DNA of 64,000 bases. It comes from Bugula neritina. Taxonomy: Eukaryota; Bryozoa; Gymnolaemata; Cheilostomatida; Bugulidae. The notes beneath the pieces are model-generated. The model was not told where the DNA came from. It searched no databases and saw nothing but the letters and a program-made list of their open reading frames with translations. The DNA is taken from the NCBI GenBank assembly GCA_964035545.1, contig OZ037765.1, forward strand, positions 8,894,698 to 8,958,697. Direction: 5' to 3'. The position numbers and the translations under genes were made by a program. The stretch's first letter is position 1, and each line of letters starts with the position of its first letter. Shown here in pieces: positions 20,500 to 62,985 of this stretch.

Positions 20500-22051
20500 A
20501 TAGTCCTGAAACAATTTCTGTACAATTATGTTTTTATTGTTGTAGCTGATTGGTTGCGCACTGGTAGGGATTGGAATATGGGTGCTGGTAGACCAGAACT
20601 TCAAGAGTCTCGTTAGCGAATCTCAAACTTTTGCCTTCCTTCAGTATGCTGGAATAGTACTGATTGTTGTTGGATCAATCGTCATGGTTGTGGGTTTCTT
20701 TGGCTGCTGTGGAGCAATTAGAGAGAGTGAATGCTGCCTCATGCTGGTAGGCTATTGGCCATATTTAAACCTGGTTCAGTAGTCCACCCAAACCTACTGC
20801 AGAATTTATAAATTACTAAGTACTCCCTCACATTGATGTTTACTAAATTGTTTTAAACAGGTGTTAGTATAGCAAAACTTGCTCTAATATGAGAAGCATG
20901 AAGAGGCACTTTAAAAGTGTCAGATCTTTTGCAATAGCTGTTCGGGAAGAGATGCCATTGTTTGTGTACTCCAAAGTTACACACTTGATTTGTTCGAGTT
21001 GAAGTGGAATTTTATTGCTGATAAGTTTTCTATTGAGAGAAGTTGCAGTTTTTTTTTATAATAATAACAGCACAATAATTCAATAGACTGCTGTCGGCAG
21101 GTTTACATTCTGACAGCTGTATCTAGTTGGATGTTACATAAATTCTTATATGAATCATCAGCTTTACAGTTAGTAGTAGTAGTCAGTAATGTTATGCGTT
21201 GTACAGGCAGCACATGCTAGCCACATACCAGCATTCGGCTGTGCAGATATTTCAATATCTCAGTCGCATAGCATTCTAATATTTTTGACGTATGGCTCTT
21301 GATTTTGTAGCTATACAAACACTATTTCATTTCTTAGCAATTTGCAACAATATACCTTTTTTGTTGACACAATTATTTAAAATTTAAGCATTTGAATACT
21401 CCCTTTACAAACAGTGTTTACACAAACACTATAGTTAAGGCTCATGGCCTGTAGTTGTGTTAAGTCAAGTTGAAAGTGTGAGGCACACAGTTATTGCACT
21501 GGTAACATTGCACTTGCCTGCGATTATTTTACCCTAATAAACCTTGCCTTAGCTGAGAAAACCTACTTTTATTTTAAATGGTTAACTGAGAGACTTGACT
21601 TTGGCTATCATTTCGAAAAAACTTATGAAAATTATATTTCTCACAGTTCCTTTAAACAATATTACTTTCTATCTAGGCTTCAAATGTGAATGTAGTCTAT
21701 CACTGTGTCTATGTCATAAAGTTTGTGTATCACTGAAGCCTACAGCCATGGAAAGACCCAGCATATTTAATGTCAAAATTATTTTTGTAATTTTGTGTTT
21801 TTCATTACTATTACTGCATTACTACTGCTACCAGTTTACTCTTTACTGCCACCACCACTAATACTGCTACTGCTGCTGCTACTACTACTGTTACTACTAC
21901 TATTACTACTACTACTGCTGCTACTACTACTACTACTACTACTATTACTGCATTACTACTGCTACCAGTTAACTCTTTACTGCCACCACCACTAATACTG
22001 CTACTGCTGCTGCTGCTACTAATACTATTACTACTACTGCTGCTGCTGCTG

Positions 22052-29374: not shown

Positions 29375-32300
29375 GTATATATATATGTATATATATAATC
29401 CTATAATAGTCCTGAAATATGTTTCTGTAAAATCATGTTATTATTGTTGTAGCTGATTGGTTGCGTACTGGTAGGATTTGGAATATGGATGCTGAATGGC
29501 CAGAACTCTGACAGTCTCCTTAGCGAGCTTCAGAGTACCAGTAGTGAATCTCAGCCTTCTGATTTCCCAGAGCATGTTGGAATTGTGCTGATCGTTGTTG
29601 GAGTACTCCTCGTGGTTGTGGGTTTCTTTGGCTCCAGTGGAGCAATTAGAGAGAGTAAAATCTGCCTCGTGCTGGTAGGCTATTCGCCATGTTTAAACTT
29701 GAATCAGTGAGGTAGGTGCAGTAATGGAAAAATTGGGAACAGCCTCTGTTCTAGAGTAGAAGCGTAGCAAAAGATGTTAGTAGTAGTAGTAGTAACAGTG
29801 GTAATAGTACCAGTACTAGCAGTACTACTATTATTACCACTACCACTACCAATACCAAACCCACTACCACTACTACTACTGCTATTGCATAAAGACGCCT
29901 CAGTCTGTCAGTCTGAAAATACTTAGTCAGTTTTAGGCATGGTATTTTTATCAACTACTCATCTTAGCTATGAAAATATATTATATGCAGGTAAAAAGTA
30001 GTAATGGTGGGAGGTTATCCAACCCTTGTAATCGTGTGGTTAGTGGTAACGCAAGCCATTCAAGATAATGATTAGAACAGTTAGTAAAAGTAACACATTT
30101 CAAGAAGGCAAGATTTCAGCACATAGTTTTGCTACAAAATGGCAATGAGCAGAGCTTGTTGATAAAGAATCATTTTTTAAGTATTGAAATGCACATTTCT
30201 TGAGTGAAATTCAGAAAAGCTTCAAAAGTTCGTAACCTTTAATTATCTCCAATTTTAGGCTTAAAAAAATTGCAAAAGCCAGTTCTTCAACATTTTGAGT
30301 GGAGAAATCTGACTTTAAGTTGCTGTTTTATATTTATATACTTACTGGCTTGCAAAATACCAAATTATTTGCATTTTCTACTCTATTAAACGAGCAATAT
30401 AAAATGCTTGCATATATGTATTAGCCTAAAGCTAACGCCCGAATTAAATTGTTTGCCACTATATATCTCTTTTACTATTAATTTAATTTTAAAATTGCCT
30501 TTTCAAAGCATAAAATAAAATTTATTTGCAGGATGTAAATACAGCTAGTTGTGGGTGTAGTGTGTTTATTACTTGTATATTTATACACTGTCTTGCTATG
30601 AATACTTGCTTCAGGACTTAATTCTCATCTCACTAAAGCTAGTTGTGGCTGTTGTAGATGGAAGACTACCCAAGTTATAAAATTATTTTAACATTTTTAT
30701 TTTGTAGTTTTTTATAAGCATGCTGATTTTCTTCCTGGCCCTGGTTGCTGGAGGTGTTGCCTGCTTAGCCTACAAAAGTGAGGTGAGTGAATCTACATGT
30801 TAAAAGAGACTGCCTCTACGTAGTATATGAAGCTTTACTTTTACTGTGTTCCTTGTTGAATTATTTTTGAGTGCATATTACTAGAAGAACTTAATTCCTT
30901 TAAACTTTGAAAATGTTTCTGAAACTGCATCAAGTTTATTTCTGGTTTAGTTGACTGAGTTCACCAAGCAAGCATTTCAAGACTCTTTTGATCAGTACAC
31001 GAATGACGACCCTCAAAGTTCGGTAGACCTTGTGCAGCGAGTTTTCTCTTGCTGCGGAGTCAACTCTTATGCTGATTACATAAAGAAAGATGTGCAGATA
31101 CCTTTCAGCTGCAAACTTGACAATACTACTGATGTCACTGAATTAGAAGGTTGTAGGGCTGTTGTGCTAGAGAAGCTAGATGAGAAAGTTATTATTACTG
31201 GTGGGATTGCCCTTGGGGGGGCTGGAGCTGCTATGGTAAGCATCTGGTTATGTGATGTAATAATGTTAACATATTATAATTTGTAGATTTGAATAATATC
31301 TCAAATTGGTTGATTTATTGTGTAAGCCAGCCAGCTACAATACCTGCTGATCTTCCATTACTGCTGAAACTACTTTTTTGTTGGCAACTGCAACCTGCAA
31401 TATTTGGGTGTACGAATATAGCCTTTAAAGATTTAAATAGCAACCTATATATGTTTAGCAATCTCAAAAGCTCTGAAGAGTTATTACACTCAGTGTCATT
31501 TACTTGAAAAAACTTAAATATTTGTTGAAAGGGACTGCTTGTACTTAGTATGAGACGCTTTACTTTTACTGTGTTACTTGTTGAATTTTTTTTGAGTGCA
31601 TATTACTAGAATAACTTAATCCCTTTAAGCTTTGAAAATGTTTCTGAAAATGTATCAAGTTTATTTCTGATTTAGATGTCCGAGATCGCCTTGCAAGCAT
31701 TTAAAGACTCGTTTGATCTGTACACGGATGACGACCCTCAAAATTTGGCAGACCTTGTGCAGCAAGTTTTCTCTTGCTGCGGAGTCAACTCTTTTACTGA
31801 TTACATATACAGAGGTGTGCAGATACCTGCCAGCTGCAAGCCTGATGATGTCACTGATGTTGCTACCTTACTGGGTTGTGCTGTCGTTTTGCGAGAACAG
31901 CTAGATGAGAAAGTTATTATTACTGGTGGGGTTGCCCTAGGGGCTGGAGCTGCTATGGTGAGCATCTGGTTATGTGATGTAATAATGTTAACATATTATT
32001 GTGGTATGTAAGTTTGAATAGTATCTCAAATTGGTTGATTTATTGTGTAAACCAGCCAGCTACAATACCTGCTGATTTTCCATTACTGCTGAAACTACTT
32101 TTCTGTTGGCAACTGCAATCTGCAATATTTGGGTGTAAGAATGTAGCATTTTGAAATTTAAATGGCAACTTATATATATTTAGCAATCTCAATAGCTCTG
32201 AAGAGTTATTACACTCAGTGTCATTTACTTGAAAAAAACTTAAATATTTGTTAAAAGAGACTGCCTGTACTTAGTACGTGAAGCTTTACTTTTACTGTTA

Positions 32301-35300
32301 CTTGTTGAATTATTTTCAAGTGCATATTACTAAAAGAACTTAATTCTTTTAAACTTTGAAAATGTTCCTAAAAATGCATCAAGTTTATTTATCTGGTTTA
32401 GTTGCCTGAGATCGCCCTGCAAGCATTTAAAGCCTCTTTTGATCAGTACAGGGATGACAACCCTCAAAGCTTGGTAGACCTTGTGCAGCGAGTTTTCTCT
32501 TGCTGCGGAGTCAACTCTTATGCTGATTATACAAAAAATGGTGTGCAGATACCTTTCAGCTGCAAATCTGGCAATACCACTGATGTCACTGAATTAGAGG
32601 GTTGTAGGGCCGTTGTGCTAGAGAAGCTAGATGAGAAGCTTGCTATTATTCCTGGTGGGATTGCCATAGGGGCTGGAGCTGCTATGGTAAGCATCTGGTT
32701 GTGTGATGTAATAGTGTTAACATAATATTATGATTTGTAGATTTGAATAATATCTCAAATTAGTTGATTTATTGTGTAAGCCAGCCAGCTACAATACCTG
32801 CTGATCTTCCGTTACTGCTGAAACTACTTTTTTAAATTCTTCAAGAAGCATATCTCTAGCTTCATGATCTTGATGTGTATGACTCAAGTTTTTTACATCT
32901 TGGGAAAACAAGCAGAAGAAATTCACATTTTTACAAATGATTTGTCGAGGTAATTTAAAATAATTTTGTGACAAGTGAAAGTAGTCGGCGTTACTGTGTC
33001 GTCCTCGTACGTAATACCTTTTGCAAGCGTTCTGTTTTTCCAACAACAAATCATATAACACCATCAGACTTTTATCATTGATGTCCAAATCTTTTAGATC
33101 GTAAACATCATCACCCCACCCAAAAAAAATCTGCGCCTGTATGGGTAATATTGTTTTTGTTCGTAGCCATATTTTCTAAGAGAGAATTTACATCCTACCA
33201 GAATTTATTACTGCGTCGCTATTCTTAAGAACTTTGAATATATCTACTTTGGGTAGTCCGAGCTCAAAAGCTTTTTGCATAATACGATTTTTGGGTTGAA
33301 AAAGAATTTTACCGTAAACCATAGGTTTATTGTAATCAAGCCGCCAGGGTTGTACAAGTAGATTACAAAGTAATGTAGTTTTATCGCATCCCGATTTACC
33401 AACAATAACGCCTCTCACGTTTTTAGGAAGTAGAGGGCTGTTGTTACAATTACTTTCGCTTTTCTAAGAAAGATTTTGTATATTCATTTACTATAATAAA
33501 TGTATTGCTTCAAATGTAAGAATCTAACTAAAACTTATAATTAAGGAGAGTCTCCAAAAACGGAAAGCTAATGGGATATGGCTGCTGTAGTTTTTGTGGA
33601 GGTAAAAAGACTACTTTCTTTAAGCAAGGGTCAGGCGTTGTAAATAGTTTGATAAATAACCTACTCGTCAAATTACATTATCCAGGTCATAACTCTTTGG
33701 GGCCCGGTACCAAACTAAATAAGCGTCTTAACGATGACACGACGCCTAAAGAATGGAGCATACCGGTAGATTGAGATGATGCGATAGCTTGTCGCCACAA
33801 TTTGTGCTACGCGAAAAATAAGGACGGGAAGACTAGAAATTCTGTATGCAATAAAAATATGTTGGATGAACTAAAGGCTATACCGAATCCTACACCCGCT
33901 GAACAATGACACAGTCGTATTGCCGAGACAATAATAGGAATAAAAAAGCGCTTAGGGTGAGGGCTTGAAAACAAGTTCGCTGGGCGAATGAATTAGCCGA
34001 AGAACCACATAAACCGGTACAAAAACAACTTCGTAAAAGACGGGTCTGGGTATCAAAATATTAATGACACCTGGGCAGCTGACTTGGTTGACATGACTGA
34101 ATTCGCTAAAGAAAATGACGGTTATAAATATCTGTCAACGGTAATAGACGTGTTTTCTAAATACGGTTGGATGATACCGTTAAAAAAAGACTGGAAAAGC
34201 AGTGGCTTTAGCTTTAAAAAAGATTTTAAGCTATTGCATAAAGGAGTTTTATAATAAAGACGTAAAGTTCTTAATAGATTTATATTTTACGGAAAATGAA
34301 AAAAAGTTTAGCATAGTTTAGTACAGAAGTGGAATAGAACTATATATGAGCGAATGTTTAAATATTTTTTAGCAAATAATATTTGTAGATATATAGATTT
34401 AATGAAAGACTTAGCCTCGGGCCACACGGTGCGTATTTTCGCATGTGAAATTTGAAATCACAAGTAGCAAAGGTGTCCACTGTAGCGTCAGTGATGCGTG
34501 ATAAATGAAGCTTTCATTTTCAAATCGCACTCGCTTTCAATAAAATGCAATTTACTGGAATGTAGCACTAAAATAAAGAAATTGGGCTCGCTGAATAACT
34601 ACCAGCAAATTAGGTGATGACGACAGAAATGATTCGCACTTGCGTTGAGAATGCTAAGCGACAAGTGCGAATGTTTTCTCAATGCGTACAGTGGACACCT
34701 TTGCTACTTGTGATTTCATTTTTCGCATGCGAAAATACGCAACGTGTGGCTAAAGTATTTGAAAAAATTGACTACCCAGCAACTGAAGGACTCTTACAGC
34801 TCGTAACATGTAAGAACCCAAAATACTACAACAAAGACAATTAAAAGAACTACGGTAATATACTCGATAAGAGTGATGCAATTTATTTGGGTGGAAATAG
34901 GCCTATAGATAAAAATAGTGCTAAATGAAAAAACATCGTTACACCTATTTGGGAACAATTAAATCCAAAAAAGCTAGATCTGCCGATTATAAGAAAGCCC
35001 AAAGGCAGACTGGTAAAGGCATTATCTTTTTACCAAACGCTTTAGTTGAACGACTTCAACTTTTACTTTCTAGCATTCAATCAGGAAAAACAGGGATTGT
35101 TCAAAATGAGATTGTTGCGATATTAGATGAACTGCTTTGAATGAAGCATATTGATTGTGAGGAATATAAAAGTATTCTTTCGCAGGTATAATAAATGTAT
35201 GTTTATAACAAACAATGTTGTGTTCACAGGAACTATGCCGGTGGTGGAATATTTGAATTTATTGCTCGAGTAGTAAGTCATGTAGCGGGAAATGAGGTGT

Positions 35301-38300
35301 TTGAAAAACCGCCTCTGCAGCGGGAAAAATTTTTATAGAGAGCACAGCAAAAAAAGTTGGTTATGTAGCTGAAGAAAAATAATTGTTAGCGAAATTGACA
35401 GACTAGTAAATATAAAAATACTAGTCTAAATGCCAAGAGTCGGGATGTATTAAAAATTTTTAGTTAACCTCGAAATGTTTCTATTTGTAATATTTTAGAA
35501 AAAAGTGGACGAGCTATAGCCATTAAAGAACTTACCAGAAAATTAAATAGATAATTTTTTTGTTATATAAATGTATGTGTTTAATATTACCCAAAATATT
35601 GTATCCGACACAAGCGTAGAGCGTGATCAAGTTCAAAAAAATACGAGCCCGTCATCGGAATGAATTTGAACAATTCCGGTTAAATTAGAATAGTTATTAA
35701 CCAGAAAGATTTATACGTTCAACCTAGTAAAAGTTATCTCATGATTGAAAGTAGATTGACAAAAAACGATGGGCCAGTGTATGCCAATATTGACATGATT
35801 TTTTTGATACATAATGGTATCGCTTACTTATTTAAAAGCGTTAGATATCAGATTAACGGACAAGACCTTGAGTATATAAATAACTCGGGTCATGCTTCGA
35901 CCATGATGGGTCTTCTAACTTATCCCGATGACTACGGTAAGTCAAGAGGCCTCAACCAATTATGGTCAAAAGACACCACCGATGCCACAGCTGCTGTTAA
36001 CTTGGGATTCCCTGCTCGTCAAGCCTATCTTATACAAAAGCCTGATCCTAAGGGATCTTTTAGTATTAAGGTGGATCTCAGACATTTGTTCGATTTGACC
36101 GATGATTATGACAAAGCTTTATATGGCATAAAGCAACAACTGACTTTAATTCGTGATACCGATGATAATGCCATCTTCAGAGCGAATGGCGTTGATGCCG
36201 GAAAATTGAACTAAGCAAGATTTCTTGGTGGGTACCGCACATAACGCCTAGCTTTGAAACGAAAGCCCAGCTTAACAAGATTATGGAATCCAAAGCTCGA
36301 ATTCCAATAATGTATAGGTCAAGATGGTGCGATAGTATCTCAGTGCCTCAACCTACTAGCCCTACTTGGCGTTTGGGTTCTAGAGGGGGGGCACCAAAAA
36401 ACCTCGCTTACGTAGGTTTTCAGACGAATAAGGCCGAAAACCAGGAAACGAATCTAGCTCTCTTTGATCACGTCAATGTCAAAAGCGTGCACGCGATGCT
36501 TAACAGTGAGCAACATCCTCAAATTGATTACAACATAGACTTTGCAAAAATAAAGTTTAGCAGGTTGTACGGAGATGCCGTTAAGTTTTGTGGAAATTAT
36601 TACAGTATAAACGAGTTGACCGCTTATTCTCTGCTCATTCTAGGCGTTAGCAAGCAGAGTGAATCGCTCAAGAATAGTGTAGCAAATATTCAACTACGAG
36701 TACAATTTAGCAAAAATGTAGCGACGAACACTCAAGCTTATGCGCTAATCCTGTCGAACAAAACCACGTCACTTAAGTCTGATGGAAATAATCTGCGAGT
36801 AGAATAATTCTTGTAATATAAATGGAAAATCTGTTGAGACAAGTTGCTGCTAATACTCTATGAGTATTGCCGTCAAGAGTGATGAAACTAAAATAATTAC
36901 AAATTGTAGCCCACCTATCGAACTAGACCGGTCTAAAAATTAGGAGATGACGCTCGTAGGTCTTGAGACCTATTATTCTTTTCCAAACATTGATGCGACT
37001 AAAAACGCAATCAAATGGTCATGAGACGGTGGGACCAACTGGCACGAATTTAAACTACCGATTGGCGTCTATGAACTTTCGGATATTGAACGAGCGATCT
37101 AAAATGAGGTAGTGAAAAATTGTGGTGCGAAAAAAGGCATCAAGATCCAACCCAACAAAATTACGCTAAAAGCCATTCTTAAGCTGAATGATGACTATCA
37201 AATAGATTTCAACATTGAAAACTCTTTACGAAATGTTTTAGGCTTTGACGCAAAAATTTGTGATCAATCTTATGTAGAACCAGAAAATGTAGATCTTCTG
37301 ATCTTAAAAGACTATGTGAATAGTGCCAGATAAATAAGCTAACAATTAATTATGAAAAAAACATCTTACATTATTTTTTAAGAACTATCAAAATAAATTT
37401 CAATTTAATTTAAAATTAACAATAAACGACAAACCAATAACAGCATGTTGACGAAGTAAAATTTTTAGGTGTGATAATTGATAGAAATTTAAACTGGTCA
37501 TCCCACATTCAGAAAATATTATTAAATCTTCGACCAATTTCGGGACTTTTTTATCGTTTAAATGCATTCGCTCCTAAAAAATTTTGATTTTGTTATACTA
37601 TTCACTTATACATTCTAGGCTGTGCTACTCTATAGAATCATGGGGGAATGCATCCAGGGTCCATTTTGATAGAGTGATAAAATTTCAAAAGAAAATTGTC
37701 TGTTTAATTCACCGCAAACTTTTTGGATACCATTCTAAAGACCTGTTTAGGAAATCAGACATTTTACCAGTTGAAAAGTCGTACAAGTACAAACTGCTAA
37801 TTAAAGCTCATAAAATCTACTATCCAGGAAGCTTTTCAACACACTCTCACCAACTACTCATCATAAGTTGCAATCTCTTCCTGTTCCATTTTGTCCCTCA
37901 TTTGCTGGTCAACGCACTTCCAATTTTGTAATATCTGCACTGTGGAATAAGTTGCCTAAATTTTTAAAAATTATACAGCTACTTGGTAAATTTAAACTGA
38001 AATTGAGGCATCACCTCCACTCTGTTGAGTAATCTGTGGTGCCTTGTACGGTTATGCCAACTTTGGGCCCGCGTACCACTAGCCCTGCTGTTTCGCACTG
38101 GGCCCCACCATCACTTCTGACAGCTTTATTGTTTATATACTGTTGTTTGTTACTATGTTTCCTTTCTAATTGTTTGTTTGCTCTTGTAACTTATGCTAAC
38201 TGTAAAACACTATATTATAATAAAAATAAAACACACACACACATTCTTAATATAAATACTATTCATGTCCACTTTGATGTAATCAGCGCAAGTTATGTGG

Positions 38301-41300
38301 ATGAAGCTCACAGACCAGTCATTTACTCATTTTTCCCCAACGTTGACCGCAGACATACAATAGTAGAAAAACCTCAAAACTTAGTGTATCAACCAGTGCA
38401 TGTACATTACATTCATGGTATGACCGTCACAATAACTAATCAAGACAGCAAGCTGTTGGCTCTCAGAAGCGAACAAATGTCTGTGAGATTTCATTTGAGA
38501 GAACAATAATTACCATAATAAATCTCATACATCAAGTACTATGTAAATGTGTCAAAAGGACAAAAAAAAATTCGCAATTTCTACACGGACAACAAAGGCG
38601 TTACCATTCAATTTTCTTACCAGGATTTGTTGAGAGGAAACGACATAATCGCTATTACGAAGACTCAGTATTCGCATATAGATAAATTCATGGAAAATGG
38701 AAAAAGCTTGGAGATAAAAGTGTCACCGGCACAAGTAAAAGCTAATCTTAAAATAGAAGGTGGATTTTTAAGCGCTCTTCTAGGTCTAGCGATAAGATTT
38801 TTACCCAATATGGCAAAGACTATTTTATCGGGTTTAGCTGTAGGAGCTCTTTCCGGGGCCGCTAGTGCCGGTGTAGAGCGAGCTATCAAAGATAATGGTC
38901 TTTACTTGAAAAATGGTGGTTGCGTGTGCACCGTAGAACCAGTTTGTGGTGGTGGGCTTTTTTGTACATCAAACTACCTTACCTAACTCCTTATCCGGAG
39001 ACGAAGTGTATTTAAAAAGAGGTTCGGGATTTGTAAGAAGTGAAGTACTGATTTTAAGTCTAAAAAGTTAGTTTAAAAACATTTTTATTTTAGGAGCCAT
39101 TTTGTAAAAAATTTATATATTGAGAGTATGTTTTAAAAACTTGAAGCTTTTAAAACTTTTCTAATACGTTGAAGAATGCAATTTATTGTTATCAACCTTT
39201 TGATTGGCTACTCATGCGTTATTCCGTTAGACATTGTCATGGACATAAATGTATTATTGGTGCTGGGCTGGGCTCCAAAGACTCTATAATATTACTGTCG
39301 GCTGTTGACATTAATAATTTACCTGCAGTCGATGACTGTAACTTAGGAATAGCAAATTCTGATATACTTCTTTTCTGCACAATCTCCTCAACGCTTAAAT
39401 CACTCTCTATGACATTACCTTCGGTCATCAACATTAATAATTTACCCCCGGTTGGTGATTGTAGCTTGGAAATAGCGAATTCTAATATATCACTTTTCTT
39501 AATGATATCCTCAACGCTTGAATCACTATCTACAACATTACCGTCTTCAGTTAATATATTTAGTCTTTTACCGGGATTTTGTATAAGTGTCATAGCAGTA
39601 TTTTTAACCCATTCTTTTACGTTATTGTTGTGATTTTGCGGGTTTAATGAAATAGACAAGTAGTCTGCATGCCAATACTTGTAATTGTTGAATAAAAGTC
39701 TTTGTAAAATATTGATTCTAATAGTCTTTATTGATGTTTCCTCTGCGAGCTCCAGTGTTAGACTGATTCATACTAGAAAAACTCACGCTTTTATACAGGG
39801 AATTTCTCGCCACTTAAGAGGGGGTCCGAAGTTCGTACGAAGTTCGGAGTTCCGGCGACCGATGTCGGAAATATCCGGTCCGATCTCGGACAGGCTCCTC
39901 CGACATCGGTTCCGACTTTAGACGAGCTTCGGCTCACATAGTTAATTATTTATAAAACAAAAAGAAAAGTGGCAGGGAATACAACTCACAAAAACTATTA
40001 CAGTAAACAAACAAAAACAATAGGAAGGGCAATTCACAATCATTACGCTATTTACTACACTAAGAGCTTAGCTATAATTACAATATTTGAGGCATTAGAA
40101 AGCTACACAAGGAGCTTAGCTATAATTACAGCATTTACAGTATTTACAAAGTTACGCTAAGTCCATTATAATAGTGACGCGATATAATTACTAGAGCGTT
40201 AAAATCCATTACATTATCAACATACTTTTTTGTATCAGCGTCTTCAGCATCAACAGAATTCGCAACTTTAGAGACTTTGCTAATACCCATATCCGAAGTG
40301 CCAGTGAGCGTATTACCACCATCTCTCAAAACAAAATCATTATTCATTTTACCAATAACTGCTAATTGCTCTTTTTTGAGCTCGGATGATCCACCAAACT
40401 TGTATACCCTACTCATTTATCATAGGTATTTATAATAAAGTTTTACTGATGCCCACGCAAATGGAATGGATCCTGGGTTTTCAGAATTCAATAGTGGGGA
40501 ACCACTCAAAGACGATACATCAGGAGGTTTTCGACTCGTAAACGACTCTGAACATAACAATGTTAGACTAAGGTTTTTATTTGCAGTCATTATCTTTATA
40601 CCATGCTGCCAGTGAGTACCACAGCCTAGGGTATTATCTAAATTTAAAATTCCCGACTTTTTTTTAGGCTTACCCTGTAAAGCGTCTTTAGAAAAAGTCC
40701 TCTTAAAGTTGAAAACTTTTAACTTTTTCACCGCTGACTCGAGGTTAGCATTTCTGAGGGGTTTGTTTATTTGGAAGAATTCTATCGTGTATTCGTATCA
40801 TTTATTTAGGTCGTCTTACTCGCCGTGGTGCGAGACGCTTTGTTAACTTTTGAAATCGAAAGTTTTTTTTCACAATCTTACCAAAATTGGTGCATATAAT
40901 AAAAAAACAATTTAGCCTCATTGATATTTATTATATCCATAAGGAATTGTATTTATTCCATCATCCAGTATAATTTTTTTATCATCCTTGGCATACAAGG
41001 CTACTTTGTTTATAGTTTCAGCGTACATCGTATGCTTATGACTTCTTAGAACATTCATCATTCGATGCTGACCGAGTTGTGTCTTAAGGCATTCTAGATA
41101 ATCGTCAAATGTTATACATATGTATGAGTACAACTTGGTGCAAATACCTAAAAACTTAATTATTTGTTTACCACCGGCTTCATCTTTAAACACACCTATT
41201 TTCTTTTTGTTCTTGCCCGTTGGTATACCCGATTTATGGCCTTTCAAATAATTACTTGTATCAAACATAGATTCTACATCTTGAGATATGTCTTTGTAAA

Positions 41301-44300: not shown

Positions 44301-47300
44301 AAGTGATGGAATTAGACTTGGCGGTGGCGGACACGCTTCCGTTGGTAGAAGCTGCCGCTCCTCTCTCACCAAGTTTTCTTCCCGCGGTATGACCACTTCG
44401 TATTCAGGTCCATGCCGCCGTCGCCCGCGCGTTGTTGTCTGCCTCCTGGGCTCTAACAACGGGGGGGGGCTTCTCCCACTCCGCCGGGGCTAGCCCAATA
44501 CGGTTTCAAGCGAGACTCATTCTGGATAGATACCTGTCCTGAGCGCTCGATCTTGTACGTATGATTGGGCATAGCCTCGACGACCACGTAGGGGCCTACG
44601 AACTTAGGCTTCAGCTTATCAGCCTGTCCGCGGCGCCTACGGTAATTGACCATCCACACCTTATCTCCCCTTTGATAGAGAGGGGGTTCATCGGAATCTT
44701 CGTGCCGCACCTTCCACTGCTGTTGACGCAGTATATCGTGTGCGGCCTTCATCCGTTCCACTAGTTCACTGGCATACTCGTGAACCGAGTTGTCTTGCTC
44801 TGGAACGTGATAGGTGAGATGGTCAGGGACACGAGTCTCTCTCCCGAGCATCAAGAGGTTTGGGGTCTCACCAGTACTGGTGTGTGGGGTGCTACGATAT
44901 GCACGCATGACTTGCGGCAACACCGTATCCCATTCCTCTTGACCTCGTCCAAGGAGGAGACTCCGGAGCGCATCACCTAGCATCCGGTTGTTGCGCTCCA
45001 CCACCCCGTTACCTTGAGGGTGGTAGGGGGTGGTCCTGCTCTGATTTACTCCCCAGAGATGGCAAAGGTCGCTCATCAGTTGAGACTGGAATTGAGCGCC
45101 TTGATCAGAGTGTATCTGTTCGGGAATCCCAAAATAACAGAATACATGTTGGTCTAGTGCCCTGGCCACTGTTGGGGCTGATGCATCTGGGATAGCCAGA
45201 GCATCCGCCCACCTAGTAAAGTGGTCGGTTAGTACTAGGATCCAATTATTGCCTCTGGGGGTCAGGGGCATGGGTCCGACCAGGTCTACAGCGACTACTT
45301 GCCAGGGCCTACCAGCATATAGCCTCCGCCGTCCTGCTTCACCAGGGGGGCGGCTATGCTTACTGGCCTGGCAGATCTCACACTGTTTGACTCTGAGCCG
45401 GACGTCACGCTCCATCTGCGGCCAATACCATCGGAGTCGTAATTTGGATATCACTCGCTTGACCCCTGCGTGGGCCTGCTTGTGAGTATCCCAAATCAAC
45501 TCACGGCGGATGGCTGTGGGGCAGACTACCCTCTTCCTTTCCGGGTGTCTGACGCTGGCAGCTAGAGAGATGGTTAGCAACCCATCCTGCCCGATCCGCA
45601 GCGAGTCCCAACGCTGACAGTATAGCCGGAACTCGGCGCATCCCTGTCGTGTGCGTTCCTCGCTGGGTCGTCGCCCTTCCCTTTTGGCCCGGTATATGTC
45701 TGCCACGACTCCAGGCAGCTCTTCTTGGAGCTTCTTCAGCTCTCGAACATTACCGGCCAGTACAGGGTTGGCGCGGAGGTTTTGTACATCCTCCGGGGAC
45801 TCATCAACTCTTTGCCTGAGTTGACCTTGATCCCAGTCAAACGGCGCTCCGTGATGAGCCAGCGTCTCCAACTCGCATCGTGGGGGACCTCCATCCCTCC
45901 TCTCGATGTTGAGACACTGTTTGCAACCTCCGTCAGGTCGGCGACTCAACCCATCCGCATTGCTGTGTCTCTTGCCCGGTCGGTGTTCGATCCGGTACGA
46001 GAATTCAGCTAGGATTTCGAGCCACCGGGCGACCTGACTAGAGGGCTCTGCTCTCCTGCACAACCAGATCAGCGAGGCATGATTCGTACGCAGCCGGAAC
46101 TTCCTGCCATATAGGTATGGTCTGAAGTGCTTCACTGACTTGATTACTGCCAGCAGCTCCTTGAGGGTAGTGCAGTAATTTCGTTCAGCGGGAGAGAGAG
46201 ACTTGCTGTAGTAGGCTACTACTACTTCTCGGCCTTCCTGCACTTGTGACAGCACAGCGCCAACATTCTGGTCACTGGCGTCCGTGTCTAGGATGTACTC
46301 CAGAGTGGGGTCTGGGTAGGCCAAGATGGGCGCCGTTAGGAGGCAGCCCTTGAGGCGGTCGAACGCTTCTTGTTCGACTGGGGTCCACTGCCACGTCACT
46401 CCCTTTGCGGTAAGCCGGTTTAACGGCTGGGCTATGCCCGCAAAGTCTGGTATGTATTGCCTGTAATACCCTACCAGCCCCAAGAAAGCCCGGAGTTCGG
46501 TCAAGTCTTGGGGGGTGACCCAGTCTTCTACTGCCCGTACCTTCTCGGGATCCGTTGCCACGCCGTTTCGACCGACAACGTGCCCCAGGTACTTGACCTC
46601 CGGCTGCAACAGAGCGCACTTGGAAGGTTTGAGCTTAAGACCGGCACCTCGGAGTCTCTCGAAAACCTCCTGCAGACGACTGACATGTGTCTCGAAGTCT
46701 GGAGAGATTACGATGACATCATCGAGGTAGACCAGCAGTGTCTTCCAATGGAGTCCGCTAAGGACTTGTTCCATCAGCCTCTGGAAGGTGGCTGGGGCGG
46801 AGGTTAACCCGAAGGGCAGCACCTTCCACTTCCACAAACCGTCCCGTGTGATAAACGCCGCTTTCTCCTGGGCGTCGGGACTCAGAGGAACCTGCCAATA
46901 GCCGCTTAGCAAGTCTAACGTACTGAAGTACTTGCTGTCGGCTAGGGCGTCCAATGACTCGTCAATACGAGGTAGAGGGTAGGCGTCCTGTATGGTTACG
47001 CTATTGAGTTTGCGGTAGTCCACACAGAACCGCCAACTGCCGTCTTTCTTCCGGACCAGTACGACTGGCGAGCTCCACGCACTATGGGCGGGCTCTATCA
47101 GTCCCCGGTCCAGAAGATCCCGTACTTGTCGGCTAACCTCCTTCTCTTTCTCCGGCCCCAGCTTGCGCGTGGGCTGCCGGACAGGGACTGTCCCTGCAGT
47201 CAGCGGTATTTCGTGTCTGACAATTCCAGTCAGTCCCACGTCATGCTCTCCGCTGCTGAACACATCACCGTAGTCGCGTAGTAACTTAGCCATAGCTTGG

Positions 47301-50300
47301 CGTTCCCTGTTACTCGCGCAGCCGCCACTGGCTGTTTCATATAACTCCCGGAGATGTGTTGGGACTGCCCCTCGTCCCTGAATAGGGTGTCGAGGGAGTG
47401 CCTCTGTCGCATCATCCAGCGACGGGCCTACGTCTCCCTCCTGAACAGAGTGAAAACGGCCCAGCATCGACCCAGCCGGGAGCTTGATAGGCTCGGTAAA
47501 GGGGTTGACGCACTGCACTAAGATCTCCCCTTGCTCAGTCAGCTGATTCAGACTGCTGGCAAGTTGGATCTTTTCGTGCGCGCCTTTAACCACCCCGAGT
47601 CCAGAGATCCGGCTACTATTCACCCTGCAGTGAATGGTAGCCCGGGAGCGGCCTGGTATGGTACGGTTGCGTACCACTTGCACACCTCCCACTAAAGGGC
47701 AGCCGAACTTGTCGACGCAGGCGAGTTCCCGCCCGGACATCATCATTGCAGATCTGCTAAAATCTATGTGACATCCGTGCCGTTTAAGGAACGGCATCCC
47801 GAGGATAGCATCCTCCTTGAGCTGACTGACGATGAACGTCTCTTGGATCGGTTGATCGCGGACTCGTCCCGTCAGCTCAATTATACCATAGAAGGGAAGG
47901 CACGACCCGTCAGCTAGGGTGCCGTATTCCCCTTCGTATGCTTCCATCTCGCCCCTGACCCTAGCACTGAGGGTGTCGAAGAGTTGGCGGCTTAAGAGGT
48001 TTGTGGTACAGCCCGAATCAATGAGAAAAGTAACAGCTTTGCCTTCCAGTTTACCGGGCAAGAAATAGCTGTTCCCATGGGGCTGCACCTGAACTCTCCC
48101 TTCAGGCCTTACTCTCGCAGGGAGTACCTCCCTCGCTTTGGGTCGCGAAGGAGGTCTCTTGGGGCGGTGATAGGTAGGCCTCGGGGGTGCCGAGGCTAGA
48201 TTCTCAGCTACCTTTGTGTGCTCCCATCCAGATTCTTGGACTTGTAGCCCTGTGAATCTGTTGTGAAGGGGCATAGAAAAGGCAGCCGCGGGGCGAAGCC
48301 CCTTGCTGGTCCGTCGTGGCTGTTGCCACTGTTGGTTGCCAGTACGCGGTACCCGTCTGGGTGACCTGCGTTTCTTCTTCCCTAGAGGTTTCATCGTCGG
48401 CCCGCGGAAGGTGGGAACATCTGCGGGCCGCGGTAGTTTAACCCCTGATTTAGGAAGGGACAATATCGGCGGAAATGTCCTTGATTTCCGCACTCCCAGC
48501 AAAAACTGACTGTTTCTCCCTGTGGCGGCGCCGATGGCCGCATGGGCTCAGGGGCGGTACTCACTGGGTTTTGTGGTGTCAGTGTTGCTATCAGCTTGGC
48601 TAGCATGTCCGTCAGTTGAGTGACTTTTGATGCCGTCGCCAACTGGGACACGGCAGCCGCGGCGGAGGTTTCCTCCCCTTGTCCCGCGGCCGTGTCTGCG
48701 CGGTCTATCTCCACTTGGCGGGAGCTTCCGCGACTTTTATGCATTTGGTTAGCTAGGAGGTAAGCTTCCCCCTCAGTCAGAGCATCTTCAACGGTGGTGA
48801 CTCCCCTAGCTAGAAACTGGTGGTGGAGACCCAGATCGTCGACAGATGCTATGAAAGCGTCGAGGGTGTACCTCTCGCGGTTGACTGGGGGCAAGTCGCT
48901 GTACGCGATCTGTGCCAGCTTCATGACCGCGGCGGCATGCTCCCGCAGCGGGGTGCGGGGATCACGCCGCAACCTCTGCAATCTGGCCCTGGCATCTGTA
49001 GCAGAGAGGCCAAAGCGGGCCCGCAGAGAAGCAAAGATATTATCAATGTCTACGCCCAGCCCATATGGCTTGGCTTTGTCCATCAATGCCATTCTAAGCT
49101 TCAGCAGGGCCACCCTAGGGGGCCACTGAGCGACGTCCATTACGTCGCTAAACTCTTGGATAAATTGTTCCACCTCCTCTTCACCCGTGAAGGTGGGCGC
49201 CTTTAACCTGTAGCGGTCTTCAGCTAGTTCTCGCGGAACCCTTCGCTCTTCTACTACATGGTTAACAGGCATTGTCTCTACAGCATTGTCTCTACGCTCA
49301 CCTTCGATTGCCGGTGGTTGAGTTCCAGCATTTTCAGTCTCCATCTTGGATGCACTATCCCACCGCTGCCACCACTGTTATAATTTTCAGATTTAGGGTT
49401 GATGTGCTATCCAGAGAGTCTATTTATCTAGTATAGAACTGCACCAGGCTAAGTCGAGTGAACGAGTATATTTTATACACAACTATACATTACAAAAACA
49501 CGATACATTATTTCCAACAAGTTACACATCTAATCTATTTCACACTCTAGCTTCGACTGAGTTAGCAGCGGGAAACTACAATTGCTGCTAACTATCAACT
49601 ACGCTAATTGGCTATCCATTGTTCCGGGTCAATTACGCGACCCTACATGTTGTGCTGCTGGTAGTTCCACGAACCACCACAATAGGTAATTGGATCTAGC
49701 TCTAGCTCAGTCGTTTTAAGCATAGCATCCCACGCCAAGCCAGGGGCAGTATAATACCAAGCCGGGTCCAATTGATAGTGTTTGAGACATATGTCTCTAA
49801 AATTCTCAAACACCTCCACTAACTGCAGCACATCAACTTTCATATAAAGATCGTGGTAGTCTTTAAAAGTCTTCATATCAAACGCTTACCAAACATCTTG
49901 AGCGTGGGTATAGTCTTCATTTGATATGCCTTTTTCAGTGAAACTCGAATAGAATTTTTCTTTTGACGGTAAAGAAGTTTCATCTAACATCGATTGATCG
50001 TTAAAATAGTCATACGGGAAAACTCATTTTCTTAATAATAAATCTAATTGTTTCTCGAGATAATATTTTTTCAAGTGTTTAAAGTGGTCACGCTTTAGAT
50101 TCTCAACTAATTTTTTTAACAAAAAGTTCATAAATTTGAACGTGTCTAAAAATCGAATTTCTCGTTTAATTTCAACGATTTTTACCCTCTTTGTCAATAA
50201 ATTTATCTACTACTAGTTGTTTACTAAAAGATATGTACTTTTCTTCGTTGTTCGAAATACACAAAATTTTACCATCCCTTAAACTTTTAATGAACAGGTG

Positions 50301-53300
50301 AGCATCGTATCCTGACAAGTTGTGAATAAACACTGGATAAAATTCCGGAACCTTATAATTTAGCTTGCACTTATTATAAGTCGGTTTTCAAAAGCATCCA
50401 GTCTGCAGTGTTGAGTTTACCTAGTAGCTCCTGTGGCATAATGGTAGCACACTTGGTTGCCAGCCAGAGGATTCGGGTTCGATTCCCAGTGGGGGCAATT
50501 ATTTTTCAAGCTCTTCCGGCCTTTAGTGAAGTGTAGTAGTACTCCGAGGGAGTTGAGTTTACTTTTTCCATCATCACGCCAGACAATTCAGAGACACCCA
50601 TAGACTATAATAATATAACTTCAACACTCCACGAAAATAGCATAATTTCTATAATAGCTTCGCCAGTAGTTATATTGTAGTGGCCAATGAAGCGTAGTAG
50701 TATACACTTGCAGTTAAGCCAAACAGAAGGAAACACGTGATTACCCCCCCCCCCCCCCCCCCCGGCAAAGCAGAATGCTTCCTGACAGTTTATATAGAGT
50801 TTAAGTTTTTTAAGTAGTATGTGAAGACAGAGAGTAGACTTGTATATGTGTAATAGAATTTAAATGTATTTTGCTATCATTTGTATATTGTGGTGGCTCG
50901 TGGAGCTACCAGCAACACAATACGCAAGGTTGCGTATTGACCCGGAACAATGTATTAGCCAATTAGCTAGGCTGTTTTATGAGTAATAGTAGCAGCTTCG
51001 CGCTACTAGCTCAGTTGAGGATAGTGCTGTAAATTAAATAGACGTGCGTATCATTACTGTTGTACATTAGATTTTATTATGTATTCTTGTATTAAAATAT
51101 AACGATATCTACTCGACTTAACTCGGTGAAGTTTCTCTAGTGATAAATAGACTCTCTTGGTGGCACATCAACCCTAAATCTGAAAATCTTAACAATATAT
51201 TGGATTAAATATAGATTTTATCTCCTACCATCTGCAAAGTGTTTGGAACTATCCGTCAAATAGGATACGATTGCATATAGAATTTACTCTAAGCATTGTA
51301 ACTTGGGAAAATTATAACAATATTAATTTTTTCCATCTCACAAAATAAAAATATTTTAACTTTTATAGAGGATTTTAACAACTTTAACACTTTTGGTTTT
51401 ACTAATTTGACAAATGACTCAAAATCGTGCTTTGGTAAACCCTGAATCTCATAGGTTTGAAACCAACCTCTAGTGGCTCGCTCTTTTAGCACGGGCTTAA
51501 TCTTAGGTTGATTATATAATGCCATGATTTTTTCCTTAAACGATTTTATGGCTGGATCTATGTCTTTTAGCGTGGATATTAACTCATAATCCACTTCTCT
51601 AAGGCATGTATTTTTTCTTTGGCTTTAGTCATCATATTTCTTTCACTATGCTTTACGGCTTGAGGTATTAGTGGAGCTTGTCCAACATTGGGAATCATAA
51701 TATTTGCAGGGGTCAATAGCTGTACGAGTTCAACTTTTTTAAGTCGAGGCTCTGAGGTCTTTGACCGTTGAAAAATGCTTCTTAGTTCTATTCATTTATT
51801 ATATAAGAATTCTTTAAGTCTATCAAAATCAATTTCTATATAATAAAATGGATATAGGACTAAGAAGAACTTTTTTTCAATGAGGTTTACCGCACAGGCT
51901 GCCAATTAGCACGCGACTAAATCAATCCTAAGAGCGGATCACGCTTGAACATTGTACAGCTCTCCCCATTTATTATGCAAAAGTTTTTTAAACTATGAAA
52001 AATGATTTACACTAACATTACTACTCATGTACATGACTAGTCGTAATACTGCTAGGTCAGTTGCTATCAAGGGTTAGCTCAATTGCTAATACTATACAAC
52101 TTTAAGGCATTACTGTAATTTCAATCACTAGTATCTCAATACATAGAGCATTCCTGTATATAGAGACTAGGTATTTAATGTAAACTATATTACACACCAC
52201 TCTACTCTCATGTGTGCACGGAATCAAGAGTCATTGAGTGTGAGGTAGTCCTGATTCATCTTTAGAGTTGTCTCATGTGTGCACAAAATCAAGGTTCATT
52301 GAATGTCCTGATTCATAAAATTATTTTTAGAGTTGTTCCTACCTCTCAAAGCGTGCACAGATTCCCATGTTTCTCAGGATCATTGGTGGTTTAGAATCAT
52401 ATAATAAATTGATTTATTTTTGGAGTTGTCCCTACCCTTCAAAGCGTGCACGGATTCCTGTATTTTGTGTAAAAATGAGTTAAAAAAGGGAGCCAGAACC
52501 ATTAAAGTTCTACTACTACTGTCTGTATTTATTATGTGAAGCTTTACTTTTACTGTGTTCCTTGTTGCATTATTTTCAAGTGCATATTACTAGAAGAACT
52601 TAATTCCTTTAAACTTTGAAAATGTTCCTGAAACCACATCAAGTTTGTTTCTGGTTTAGTTGCCTGAGATCGCCGTGCAAGAATTTAAAGCCTCTCTTGA
52701 TCAGTACACGAATGGCTTCTCGGGAGATTTGGTAGACCTTGTGCAGCGGGTTTTCTCTTGCTGCGGAGTCAACTCTTATGCTGATTACTTGAACAAAAGT
52801 GTGCAGATACCTGCCAGCTGCAAATCTGGCAATACCACTGATGTCACTGAATTAGAGGGTTGTAGGGCCGTTGTGCTAGAGAAGCTAGATGAGAAGCTTG
52901 CTATTATTACTGGTGGGATTGACCTAGGGGCTGGAGCTGCTATGGTAAGCATCTGGTTATGTGATGTAATAATGTTAACATATTATGATTTGTAGATTTG
53001 AATAGTATGTCAAATTAGTTGATTTATTGTGTAAGCCAGCCAGCTACAATACCTGCTGATTTTCCATTACTGCTGAAACTACTTTTCTGTTAGCAACTGC
53101 AATCTGCAATATTTGGGTGTAAGAATATAGCATTTAAAGATTTGAATGGCAACTCATATATATTTAGCAATTTCAATAGCTCTGAAGAGTTATTACACTC
53201 AGTGTCATTTACTTGAACAAACTTAAATATTTGCTAAAAGAGACTGCCTGTACTTGGTACGTGAAGCTTTACTTTTACTGTTACTTGTTGAATTATTTTC

Positions 53301-56300
53301 AAGTGCATATTACTAAAAGAACTTAATTCCTTTAAGCTTTGAAAATGTTCATAAAACTGCATCAAGTTTGTTTCTGGGTTTAGTTGCCTGAAATCACCGT
53401 GCAAGCGTTTAAAGACTCTTTTGCTCTGTACAAGAATGACGACCCTCAAAGTTTGGTAGACATTGTGCAGCGAGTTTTCTCTTGCTGCGGAGTCAACTCT
53501 TATGCTGATTATACAAAAAATGGTGTGCAGATACCTTTCAGCTGCAAATCTGATGATGTCACTGATGTCACTACCTTACAGGGTTGTAGTGCCGTTGTGC
53601 CAGAGAAGCTAGATGAGAAAGTTATTATTACTGGTGGGATTGCCCTAAGGGCTGAAGCTGCTATGGTGAGCATCTGGTTATGTGATGTAATAATGTTAAC
53701 ATAATGTGATACGTAGATTTGAATAGTATCTCAAATAGGTTGATTTATTGTGTAAGCCAGCCAGCTATAATACCTGCTAATCTTCCATTACTGCTGAAAC
53801 TACTTTTCTGTTGGCAACTGCAACCTGCAATTATATTTGGGTGTAAAAATATAGCATTTAAAGATTTAAATGGCAACTTATATATATTTAGCAATCTCAA
53901 TAGCTCTAGAGAGTTATTACACTCAGTGTCATTTACTTGAAAAAACTCAAATATTTGTTAAAAGAGACTGCGTCTGTACTTAGTACGTGAAGCTTTACTT
54001 TTACTGTGTTCCTCGTTGAGTTACTTTCAAGTGCATATTATTAAAAGAACTTAAGGGTCATTCCACACCAACTCAACAAGGTTTTTGAGGATTTTCACGG
54101 ACAGCTGCTCCGTCAGAGAATTAATGAATTTTTTTCAAGTGGGAGACAATTTCTCTACTAGATTCAAGACTGTTTTCTAAATCATCCTGATGGAAACAGT
54201 GTCATGTTGCAAACAGTTACTTTTTATACAAAGGCAGTAATTAGGTTTAACCTCCAAGATCTACAGGATATGCCACAAAGCGATTTACAGCAGCTTAGGA
54301 ATTTTCCCAGTAAAACTACTGCACCACATTGTAACAATTAGTCCTTTGAAACCAAGAACTATCAGGCCATAGCATCTAATGTCTATGCACCTAAATATGT
54401 AAACTTCATTATTTACATAATATTTTCTGGTTTAGCAAAAAATTGAGAGTTTTTTGTCTAATTTAATATATACGTAATTGAAGAAACAATTGCTAAAGCC
54501 AGCATTTCTTCTTCACTCCATCCTTCACGCACTCATCCACACCCTCAGCCACCCATCATCTCTTACCTTCTTCCGGTAAAATTCCACACACACACACACC
54601 CACCCTGTAAGAAACCTGCTCTTTCAGTTTGACTGGCTTGCTAATAATAAAATACATTTTGGCAGTATGCTTCGTGAAGGTATCTCTACTTGATTAATTT
54701 ACAGGTCGGAGCAGGTGATAATTGTTTGGTAAAAGAAAAAAAGATATGTATGTGTGTGTGTGCATGCGTGTGTGTCTATGTATGTATGTAGGAGTGCATC
54801 AGGAGTGGTGCATGGGAGCAAGTGAGGGGGTACAAATGAAAGGGCAGAAAATAATGAGAAATATACTGCATGAAAGCATGGCACCCATCAAGTGGCAGCA
54901 TGACAAAATACATTAATTTAGTCGAATATTTACTCATGAGAAAACATGCAAACATTGATTCTTTGAGAAGTAAAAATGTATACATATAAACCCACAAGTG
55001 ATATAATTGTAATAATGTTCTTTTTTTATTTACTAGATTAAAATCTATATTGTGCTTTTAAATTCAAACAGTTTACGATATTTTTAAAGTGAACCCAGTT
55101 CAATAAATCTTATGAAGTATAATAATGATTAATGATATCCAAATTAAACTTGAATGTTGCGAAAATGATTGCGCAGATAATATGTAAACAATTTTGGTAT
55201 TTTTATGACTTTATGCATGTTTCAGCAACTGTATAAACTATATATAAGTGTAGTTTTAAATATAGGCAAAAATCAAAATAACGTCATTAACTTCAACATC
55301 TTTAAAATGCATCATTTTTAAAAAAACTCATTTATGCCCACATTGAGTTTTCTCCTCATGAAATAGTACATAATTTCAAAATTTTAGGATTTCAACATGC
55401 AATTGTGATGAAATTTATGCCAGTAAAAAGCTGAAACTTTTCTAATGTGGTATATATAATATAGTTTTTAGGCCCTTGCTAATACTATCAAGATCATAGC
55501 TGTTTGTAAAAAGTGAGTTTTAAGTGCCGGAAAATTGACGATTTTGAAAAATTACCAAATTTTTGACCTAAAAACGTAATACAACAGAAAATTTTTGTCA
55601 ACACTTATGGCAGATTTAAGCTTTAACTTGAATAAAATCATGTAGAACTTTCATCCATAAAAGTATGAAAGGTCTGTCTTGAATCGTCTCCGAGATATAA
55701 ATCAGTGAAGTTGACCTCCGGTACCGAAACTTATGAGAAAAGTACCAATTTTTTATCAACCTTTGCTCACAAAAAGTGCCACAACTACAAAAATATTAGG
55801 AATTAAGGGCTAATATTTGACAATTTTTCATTTGACATGATCTGGGATACCATACTTGAATCTCAAAAAATTCTGAGATGGGTCGGTTTTGGCCTTGTTG
55901 AGTTGGCGTGGAATGACCCTTGATTACTTTAAGTTTTGAAAATGTTCCTAAAACTGCATCAGGTTTGTTTCTGGTTTAGTTAAGCGAGTTCGCTGAGCAA
56001 GCATTTACAGACTCTTTTGATCTGTACACCAATGATGACCCTCAAAGTTTGGTAGACCTTGTGCAGCGGGTATTCTCTTGCTGCGGAGTCAACTCTTATG
56101 CTGATTACTTAAACAAAAGTGTGCAGATACCTGCCAGCTGTAAATCTGGCAATACCACTGATGTCACTGAATTAGAGGGTTGTAGTGTCGCTTTGCCAGA
56201 GAAGCTAGATAAGAAAGTTATTATTACTGGTGGGGTTGCCCTGGGGGCTGGGGCTACTATGGTAAGCATCTGGTTGAGTGATGTAATAATGTTAACATAT

Positions 56301-62400: not shown

Positions 62401-62985
62401 ACTGATGTGACTGAATTAGAGGGTTGTAGTGTCGTTGTGCTAGAGAAGCTAAATGAGAAGTTTGTTATTATTACTGGTGGGGTTGCCCTAGGGGCTGGGG
62501 CTGCTATGGTAAGCATCTGGTTATGTGATGTAATAATGTTAACATATTATAGTGGTATGTAGATTTGAATAGTATCTCAAATAGGATGATTTATTGTGTA
62601 AGCCAGCCAGCTATAATACCTGCTGATCTTCCATTACTGCTGAAACTACTTTTCTGTTAGCAACTGCAACCTGCAATATTTGGGTGCAAGAATATGGCAT
62701 TTTGAAATTTAAATGGCAACTTATATATATTTAGCAATTTCAATAGCTCTGAAGAGTTATTACACTCAGTGTCATTTACTTGAAAAGATTGAATATTTGC
62801 AATGACTTGTGGAGTTGCCTACACCTTGTTTGAAACTCTGTGCATTTTGTGATGAGATATTATACAGTCACAATTTTTCTCATATACCATTAATTAAAGG
62901 GAATTATTTATTTTGTATTTTACAGCTCATTGGCTTGGTGTTCTCCATGATGTTATGCTGTGCCATTAGAAATCAGAATCTGTAA
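59423..62985 (+). CDS. tetraspanin C (five exons)
   Basis: Exons 59423-59623 (exon 1', inferred), 60719-60940, 61981-62055, 62224-62508, 62926-62985, all phase 0 with GT-AG ends. The TM1/TM2 exon keeps 'GCCGAIRES'. TM3 exon '[17 protein letters not shown]'. The single EC2 exon has '[15 protein letters not shown]', 'ISFSC' (serine instead of proline before the third cysteine's 'FSC'), the sequon NTT, and 'EGC'. The last exon ends 'CCAIRNQNL'. If exon 1' is right, the N-terminus has about 55 cytoplasmic residues before TM1 ('RALLLYT' joined to '[12 protein letters not shown]'). Closest to gene B in exons 1'-3, so B and C diverged after A. Confidence 0.85.
60616..60660. repeat. (CA)n/(CACG)n/(TA)n microsatellite
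   Basis: Mixed dinucleotide run in intron 1 of tetraspanin C, at the place of the (AT)n runs of A and B. Confidence 0.85.
61039..61150. repeat. trinucleotide repeat, intron 2 of tetraspanin C
   Basis: Diverged AGT/ACT/ACC triplets homologous to 21830-22175 and 29776-29890. Confidence 0.8.

What the first reader, a model, noticed from the sequence alone, without database searches (positions are those of the whole stretch)
30951..56261. Tetraspanin gene with six tandem, phase-matched exons for the extracellular loop: a candidate mutually exclusive splicing array
Seen: between one TM3 exon (30708-30782) and one last exon (56677-56736) lie six EC2 exons (30951, 31676, 32402, 52660, 53384, 55980). 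Each is 282 or 285 nt, phase 0-0, open, with its own 'ggtttag'-type acceptor and GTAAG/GTGAG donor, and every one keeps CCG, PxSC and GC. Undisturbed units recur every 724-726 nt, introns included. The sister genes A and C have one such exon. Inference: only one EC2 exon can be used per protein, so the gene would swap the ligand-binding face of one tetraspanin, in the manner of Dscam exon clusters. I know of no described tetraspanin with such an array.
Basis: partly seen in the sequence, partly recalled or inferred. Interest (0 to 1): 0.92.

Follow-up and report, generated by a model that had tools for sequence, protein, structure and literature searches.

The report
Bryozoan tetraspanin with six swappable loop exons
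In the moss animal Bugula neritina, a cell-surface tetraspanin gene carries six side-by-side versions of the exon for its partner-binding loop, and two of its three gene blocks seem to have no first exon of their own, so one start may feed many loop versions; no RNA evidence was available to show which are used.

Summary
The window is Bugula neritina chromosome 1. Six phase 0-0 exons of 282 or 285 nt, each encoding a tetraspanin EC2 loop, lie at the stated places with intact splice sites. They repeat every 724-726 nt except where mobile elements split the array.

Three things change the picture. (1) A, B and C are not three complete genes. Only one exon 1 was found (17246-17323); the duplicated block begins inside intron 1, so cassettes B and C were copied without exon 1 or the ancestral promoter. 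If made as four-pass proteins, they most simply borrow exon 1. (2) The EC2 exons are mosaics made by exchange between units, and unnamed public sequences hold further EC2 exons of this family, three sharing one listed contig length (3,168 nt). (3) Mutual exclusion is not shown: all exons are multiples of three, introns are long enough for serial splicing, and a simple docking/selector test was negative.

Evidence of coding constraint is modest (pN/pS 0.83, interval includes 1). Best reading: alternative, one-at-a-time EC2 use. Serious rival: promoterless duplication debris. The paper searches made listed no similar tetraspanin.

The parts
17246..17323 (+). single exon 1 (first half of TM1), donor GTAAGT; the only copy found in window +-10 kb
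   Evidence: resembles the start of Watersipora CD9-like P0003
18259..18395 (+). left end of the duplicated block, inside intron 1: copies reappear at 26009-26081 and from 26522, and at 58246-58317 and from 58784
20546..20746 (+). cassette A, EC1/TM2 exon
23188..23262 (+). cassette A, TM3 exon
23432..23713 (+). cassette A, single EC2 exon
24131..24190 (+). cassette A, last exon with stop
29453..29674 (+). cassette B, EC1/TM2 exon (membrane-proximal CC replaced by SS)
30708..30782 (+). cassette B, TM3 exon
30951..31235 (+). EC2 exon B1
31676..31957 (+). EC2 exon B2
32402..32686 (+). EC2 exon B3
32832..52517 (.). mobile-element block inside the array: degraded Polinton-like pieces and an LTR retroelement at 42194-49681
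52660..52944 (+). EC2 exon B4
53384..53665 (+). EC2 exon B5
54055..55919 (.). 1,865-bp inverted-terminal-repeat element between B5 and B6, flanked by TTAA / TTGA
55980..56261 (+). EC2 exon B6
56677..56736 (+). cassette B, last exon with stop
60719..60940 (+). cassette C, EC1/TM2 exon
61981..62055 (+). cassette C, TM3 exon
62224..62508 (+). cassette C, single EC2 exon
62926..62985 (+). cassette C, last exon with stop

Best explanation
A CD9-like tetraspanin locus in which one exon 1 serves three tandem downstream cassettes (A, B, C). Cassette B has had its EC2 exon, with flanking intron, duplicated in tandem to six. Each mRNA would take exon 1, one EC1/TM2 exon, its TM3 exon, one EC2 exon and the matching last exon, giving up to eight proteins that differ mainly in the partner-binding loop. 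Shown: exon anatomy, a single exon 1 in the searched stretch, duplication boundary inside intron 1, exchange between units. Inferred: transcription, borrowing of exon 1 by B and C, and one-at-a-time choice. How one exon is chosen is unknown; leading possibilities are a regulated choice among weak splice sites, or RNA pairing missed by the simple test.
For: Six open exons with intact splice sites and equal phase. Six motif codons (CCG, C, GC) invariant in 8 of 8 exons, chance 0.004 if invariant columns fell at random, and 0.008 for B1-B6 alone. Exon length differences are 3 nt in 22 of 22 pairwise counts (they come from two alignment columns, so few events), while the intron pieces compared show 1, 2, 3 and 9 nt. 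One exon 1 in window +-10 kb; the only other found by a genome DNA search belongs to a chr2 paralog. Duplicated block starts about 1 kb inside intron 1. EC1 acceptors and phase are kept in A, B and C, and chr2-paralog gene models P0098/P0099 show the same exon 1-to-EC1 join. Unnamed public sequences hold more EC2 exons of this family, three sharing a listed contig length of 3,168 nt.
Against: No transcript of any B exon was found. Among close relatives, protein searches returned one gene model (P0001, nearest cassette C) and ORFs that read into an intron or end at a contig end; search 50 (120 of 285 hits listed) added only chr2-paralog models for this species. pN/pS among the eight exons is 0.83 (0.58-1.24) and variable columns are spread 38/32/33 over codon positions. 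A conservative stop-codon test gives P=0.19 for B1-B6; a less strict one gives 0.003 for all eight. Docking/selector test negative. Cassette A has polyadenylation-like signals after its last exon that a transcript reaching B or C must pass.
Confidence: 0.5

Rival explanations
1. Cassettes B and C are recent duplication debris without exon 1 or promoter; the EC2 array is an unexpressed tandem repeat that has not yet decayed.
For: No exon 1 found for B or C; near-neutral pN/pS 0.83, interval 0.58-1.24, and even spread over codon positions; conservative stop test not significant, P=0.19; EC1-B has lost the CC pair; mobile-element insertions inside the array, one with identical LTRs.
Against: All six B exons keep splice sites, frame and motif cysteines; only 3-nt length differences in exons; TM3 of B and C identical in protein, and the 57 coding bases of the last exon identical in A, B and C; further, different EC2 exons of the family exist in other public sequences, though an ORF-based search favours open ones.
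Confidence: 0.28
2. Only one of the six EC2 exons is used in practice, the others being skipped or dying.
For: Nothing in the sequence forces choice among six; the B3-B4 intron is about 20 kb, so exons before and after it are in unequal positions.
Against: No exon shows a broken splice site or frame.
Confidence: 0.1
3. The extra EC2 exons are a reservoir that donates sequence by gene conversion to one expressed exon or to A and C.
For: Mosaic pattern: exon PHI-type test 0 of 1000 permutations (window 50), 23 of 1000 (window 100); B3 is identical to B5 over codons 33-56 and to B4 over 57-80.
Against: The A-like and C-like exons of other sequences are 89-91% like A and C, while the other exons reach at most 83% to any exon here, so A and C do not look like heavy recipients. 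The counterparts were picked by similarity, so this is weak.
Confidence: 0.07
4. Several EC2 exons are spliced in series, giving one long protein.
For: All exons are 3n and phase 0-0, so series inclusion stays open.
Against: Each exon ends in what looks like half of TM4, so repeats would put hydrophobic half-helices between loops; topology argument, not tested.
Confidence: 0.05

Closest known systems
Mutually exclusive exon clusters of Dscam1 (PMC6071210, passages; PMC8042237, search listing only)
   Same: Neighbouring homologous exons for a variable extracellular region, equal phase, flanking introns duplicated with the exon.
   Different: Six exons, not dozens; a tetraspanin loop instead of Ig domains; no docking/selector signal found; no RNA proof.
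Chelicerate sDscam with tandem 5' cassettes (PMC4835542, passages)
   Same: Whole multi-exon cassettes duplicated in tandem around a shared constant part.
   Different: There the variable cassettes are 5', each preceded by a promoter, sharing 3' constant exons; here the shared part is exon 1 and the cassettes are 3' with their own stops.
Drosophila lola / mod(mdg4) (recalled, not looked up)
   Same: Shared 5' exon(s) joined to alternative 3' terminal cassettes.
   Different: Transcription factors, not surface proteins; trans-splicing known there (recalled), untested here.
CD9/CD81-type tetraspanins (6k4j, 7jic)
   Same: EC2 plus TM4 profile matches human CD9 (E 8e-10); CCG and later cysteines.
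   Different: The tetraspanin splice forms described in the passages seen of PMC6773723 mainly delete or shorten parts; no EC2 exon array was seen in those passages.

Membership tests
Tetraspanin (Pfam PF00335, CD9-like) | Profile match, CCG motif and further EC2 cysteines | tested here: met
   EC2 exon B1 53.9 and EC1-B 45.9 bits against cut-off 32.1; TM3-B exon alone below it at 12.6; all eight EC2 exons over the cut-off in the genome search; CD9 by sequence. Low-confidence fold (pLDDT 64.4); best Foldseek hits are tetraspanins, none at E <= 0.001
Tetraspanin (Pfam PF00335, CD9-like) | Four transmembrane segments in one product | not tested
   exons for all four are present for A if exon 1 is used; B and C lack the first half of TM1 unless they borrow exon 1; no membrane predictor was run
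Mutually exclusive exon cluster | Neighbouring exons, similar length, splice-site and frame conservation, sequence homology (criteria in the title of PMC3228551) | tested here: met
Mutually exclusive exon cluster | Exactly one exon per mature RNA | not testable with these tools
   no RNA data held; no spliced B transcript in the listed hits of searches
Mutually exclusive exon cluster | A mechanism that prevents joint inclusion: spatial block, spliceosome incompatibility, decay, or competing RNA pairing (PMC6071210 passages) | tested here: inconclusive
   decay by frame excluded because all exons are 3n; the first two are described for clusters of two; RNA pairing 36, 29 and 54 of 100 shuffles as strong, 51, 48, 8 and 26 of 60
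Shared-first-exon, alternative-3'-cassette locus | Single first exon with several downstream cassettes lacking their own | tested here: met
   (sequence anatomy only)
Shared-first-exon, alternative-3'-cassette locus | Exon 1 spliced to each cassette in mRNA | not testable with these tools
   no such transcript in the listed hits

The most novel reading that the evidence does not exclude
A two-level isoform generator in a tetraspanin: one first exon feeds three tandem cassettes, and the middle one chooses among six partner-binding loops that are continually reshuffled by gene conversion and differ between colonies or lineages. It would serve as a variable recognition surface in a colonial animal (colony or symbiont recognition).
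Probability: 0.12. Interest if true: 0.9.

Novelty: new member of a known kind. Interest (0 to 1): 0.6.

Why it matters
Tetraspanins pick their partners largely through the variable part of EC2 (passages of PMC2650405 and PMC6773723). A gene that can swap the whole loop exon by exon would be a new way to diversify a surface protein, outside the Ig and cadherin families. It would also give a natural set of EC2 variants on one scaffold for binding studies. In a colonial bryozoan with symbionts, a loop array that differs between samples makes a recognition role directly testable. If it is debris, it is a clear example of how exon arrays arise before function.

Tried and rejected
MDAE reading frame (27155 and 59423) as a first exon for B and C: rejected. 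It is 37-44% like the start of frames elsewhere in the genome, 11 of them 1,372 aa long. The start of one such frame looks gag-pol-like by my reading (no domain search was run on it). In B it meets a stop.

Intron read-through as an alternative end: every EC2 exon reads into 12-17 hydrophobic residues and a stop (8 of 8). No AATAAA follows within 450 nt in 8 of 8; ATTAAA does in 4 of 8 (A, B5, B6, C). Left as a side note.

Docking/selector pairing: first script timed out. One search used six upstream pieces (B6 only 54 nt) and mononucleotide shuffles; one search used the three undisturbed internal introns and dinucleotide shuffles. Both negative; single sequences cannot show conserved pairing.

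Positive selection: exon diversity 0.140 exceeds the downstream intron (0.077) but not clearly the upstream intron (0.129). No claim made.

Structure: AlphaFold2 of EC2 exon B1 gave mean pLDDT 64.4, too low to map variable sites.

Relatives: this assembly has no relatives held (tool text); the metagenome contigs carrying further EC2 exons could not be fetched (cap 0 in the tool description).
Full report
Where it is. The window is G000:C1:8894698-8958697. C1 is 35,640,107 bases, the exact length given for the longest scaffold of the Bugula neritina assembly tzBugNeri2.1 (PMC11480708, outline and section 5 read). So this is chromosome 1 of a bryozoan.

What is there. The six EC2 exons are confirmed at the stated coordinates, open and with intact splice sites. 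A genome search with B1 gives 8 matches, and all 8 lie in this window: the six plus one each in cassettes A and C. A tetraspanin profile search of the genome gives 41 matches at E <= 0.001 (54 candidates scored); judged by the profile ranges listed, repeated EC2 matches close together occur only here. Undisturbed units recur every 724-726 nt. The two larger gaps are insertions: an inverted-terminal-repeat element of 1,865 bp between B5 and B6, and between B3 and B4 about 20 kb of degraded Polinton-like pieces plus an LTR retroelement whose two 306-base LTRs are identical.

A, B and C. Each cassette has an EC1/TM2 exon, a TM3 exon, EC2 exon(s) and a last exon. A motif scan upstream of each cassette found an exon 1 only before A, at 17246-17323. 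A protein search of window +-10 kb found no second significant copy. A genome DNA search found one other, on C2, at a paralogous tetraspanin with exon 1, EC1, an EC2 that matches in two pieces and a last exon; its TM3 exon was not matched. Comparison of the spacers shows that the copied block starts inside intron 1, between 18259 and 18395, and runs past the last exon. Cassettes B and C were therefore copied without exon 1 and without the ancestral promoter. Acceptors and phase at EC1 are kept in all three. The simplest way to make a four-pass protein from B or C is to splice exon 1 over A; this is inference.

Evolution of the array. Mean pairwise difference among the eight units is 14.0% in exons, 12.9% in the upstream intron and 7.7% in the downstream intron; B6 upstream and B3 downstream were cut short at the insertions. 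pN is 0.134 and pS 0.162, ratio 0.83 with bootstrap interval 0.58-1.24; variable columns fall 38/32/33 on codon positions 1/2/3. So protein constraint across the exon as a whole is weak. Against plain decay: six motif codons are invariant in 8 of 8 exons, chance 0.004, or 0.008 in the six B exons; exon length differences are 3 nt in 22 of 22 pairwise counts, which reflect only two alignment columns, against 1, 2, 3 and 9 nt in the intron pieces. Stop-codon tests: no stops, where 5.7 were expected if each exon's differences from the consensus are dealt out at random, P about 0.003; with changes unique to each exon only, 2.3 expected, P=0.08 for all eight and P=0.19 for B1-B6. The exons are mosaics: a home-made PHI-type test gives 0 of 1000 permutations at window 50 and 23 of 1000 at window 100. 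For the introns alone it gives 23 and 502 of 1000 downstream and 935 and 893 of 1000 upstream, so the signal lies mainly in the exon. B3 equals B5 over codons 33-56 and B4 over codons 57-80.

Other sequences. Protein one search (19 hits at E <= 1e-5) returned seven unnamed jgi proteins (P0081, P0083-P0087, P0090) and one ena protein (P0082) that are plainly EC2 exons of this family. They read on into the intron, so they look genomic. P0085, P0086 and P0087 list the same longest contig of 3,168 nt, which fits three exons in one array; the contig itself was not seen. P0082 is 91% like A, and P0001 and P0084 are 89% like C, while the others are at most 83% like any exon here. The array may turn over faster than the single exons. 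That these sequences are B. neritina is inferred from similarity; of these only P0001 is so named.

Mutual exclusion. PMC6071210 (passages) lists spatial constraint, spliceosome incompatibility, nonsense-mediated decay and competing RNA pairing, limits the first two to clusters of two, and says decay does not apply to exons that are multiples of three. Here all are. RNA pairing between flanking sequence and the repeated introns was no stronger than shuffles (36, 29, 54 of 100; 51, 48, 8, 26 of 60). One-at-a-time use thus rests on topology: each exon encodes the loop and about half of TM4. It is not shown.

Literature. Searches returned no paper; two returned one unrelated paper; one listed 11 of 12 and 73 listed 10 of 44, none of which names a tetraspanin exon array in title or abstract start. 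Two were opened by passages. PMC2650405 describes ancestral phase 0 introns in tetraspanins, so equal phase is expected here. PMC6773723 describes tetraspanin splice forms that mainly lose parts, and says that deletion of the first CD82 membrane segment blocks exit from the ER, which bears on what a B or C product without exon 1 would do.

Verdict. The array is real and not in the listings of the searches made. Alternative EC2 use is the best reading at about 0.5; promoterless debris is the main rival at 0.28. RNA reads across a few junctions would settle it.

Noticed in passing
window 42194-49681: LTR retroelement with identical 306-base LTRs and ATAG next to both ends, with reverse transcriptase, RNase H and integrase domains; probably a very recent insertion in the B3-B4 intron.
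   Followed up: partly
window 34036-41481: Degraded Polinton/Maverick-like pieces: double-jelly-roll capsid halves in two frames, a weak integrase fragment, and a polymerase-like fragment with no Pfam hit.
   Followed up: partly
window 29633-29638 (EC1-B): Cassette B reads [12 protein letters not shown] where A and C read GFFGCCGAIRES: the membrane-proximal cysteine pair is lost.
   Followed up: no
first 36-51 nt after each EC2 exon (window): Intron read-through gives a hydrophobic 12-17 residue tail and a stop in 8 of 8 units; an intron-retained form would still have a TM4-like end.
   Followed up: partly
window 27155-27385 and 59423-59710: Gag-like fragment upstream of cassettes B and C but not matched upstream of A; could have brought regulatory sequence.
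   Followed up: partly
L043 (G000:C2:2138000-2147999): Paralogous CD9-like gene with similar exon 1 and last-exon boundaries but EC2 matching in two pieces, as if split by an intron.
   Followed up: partly
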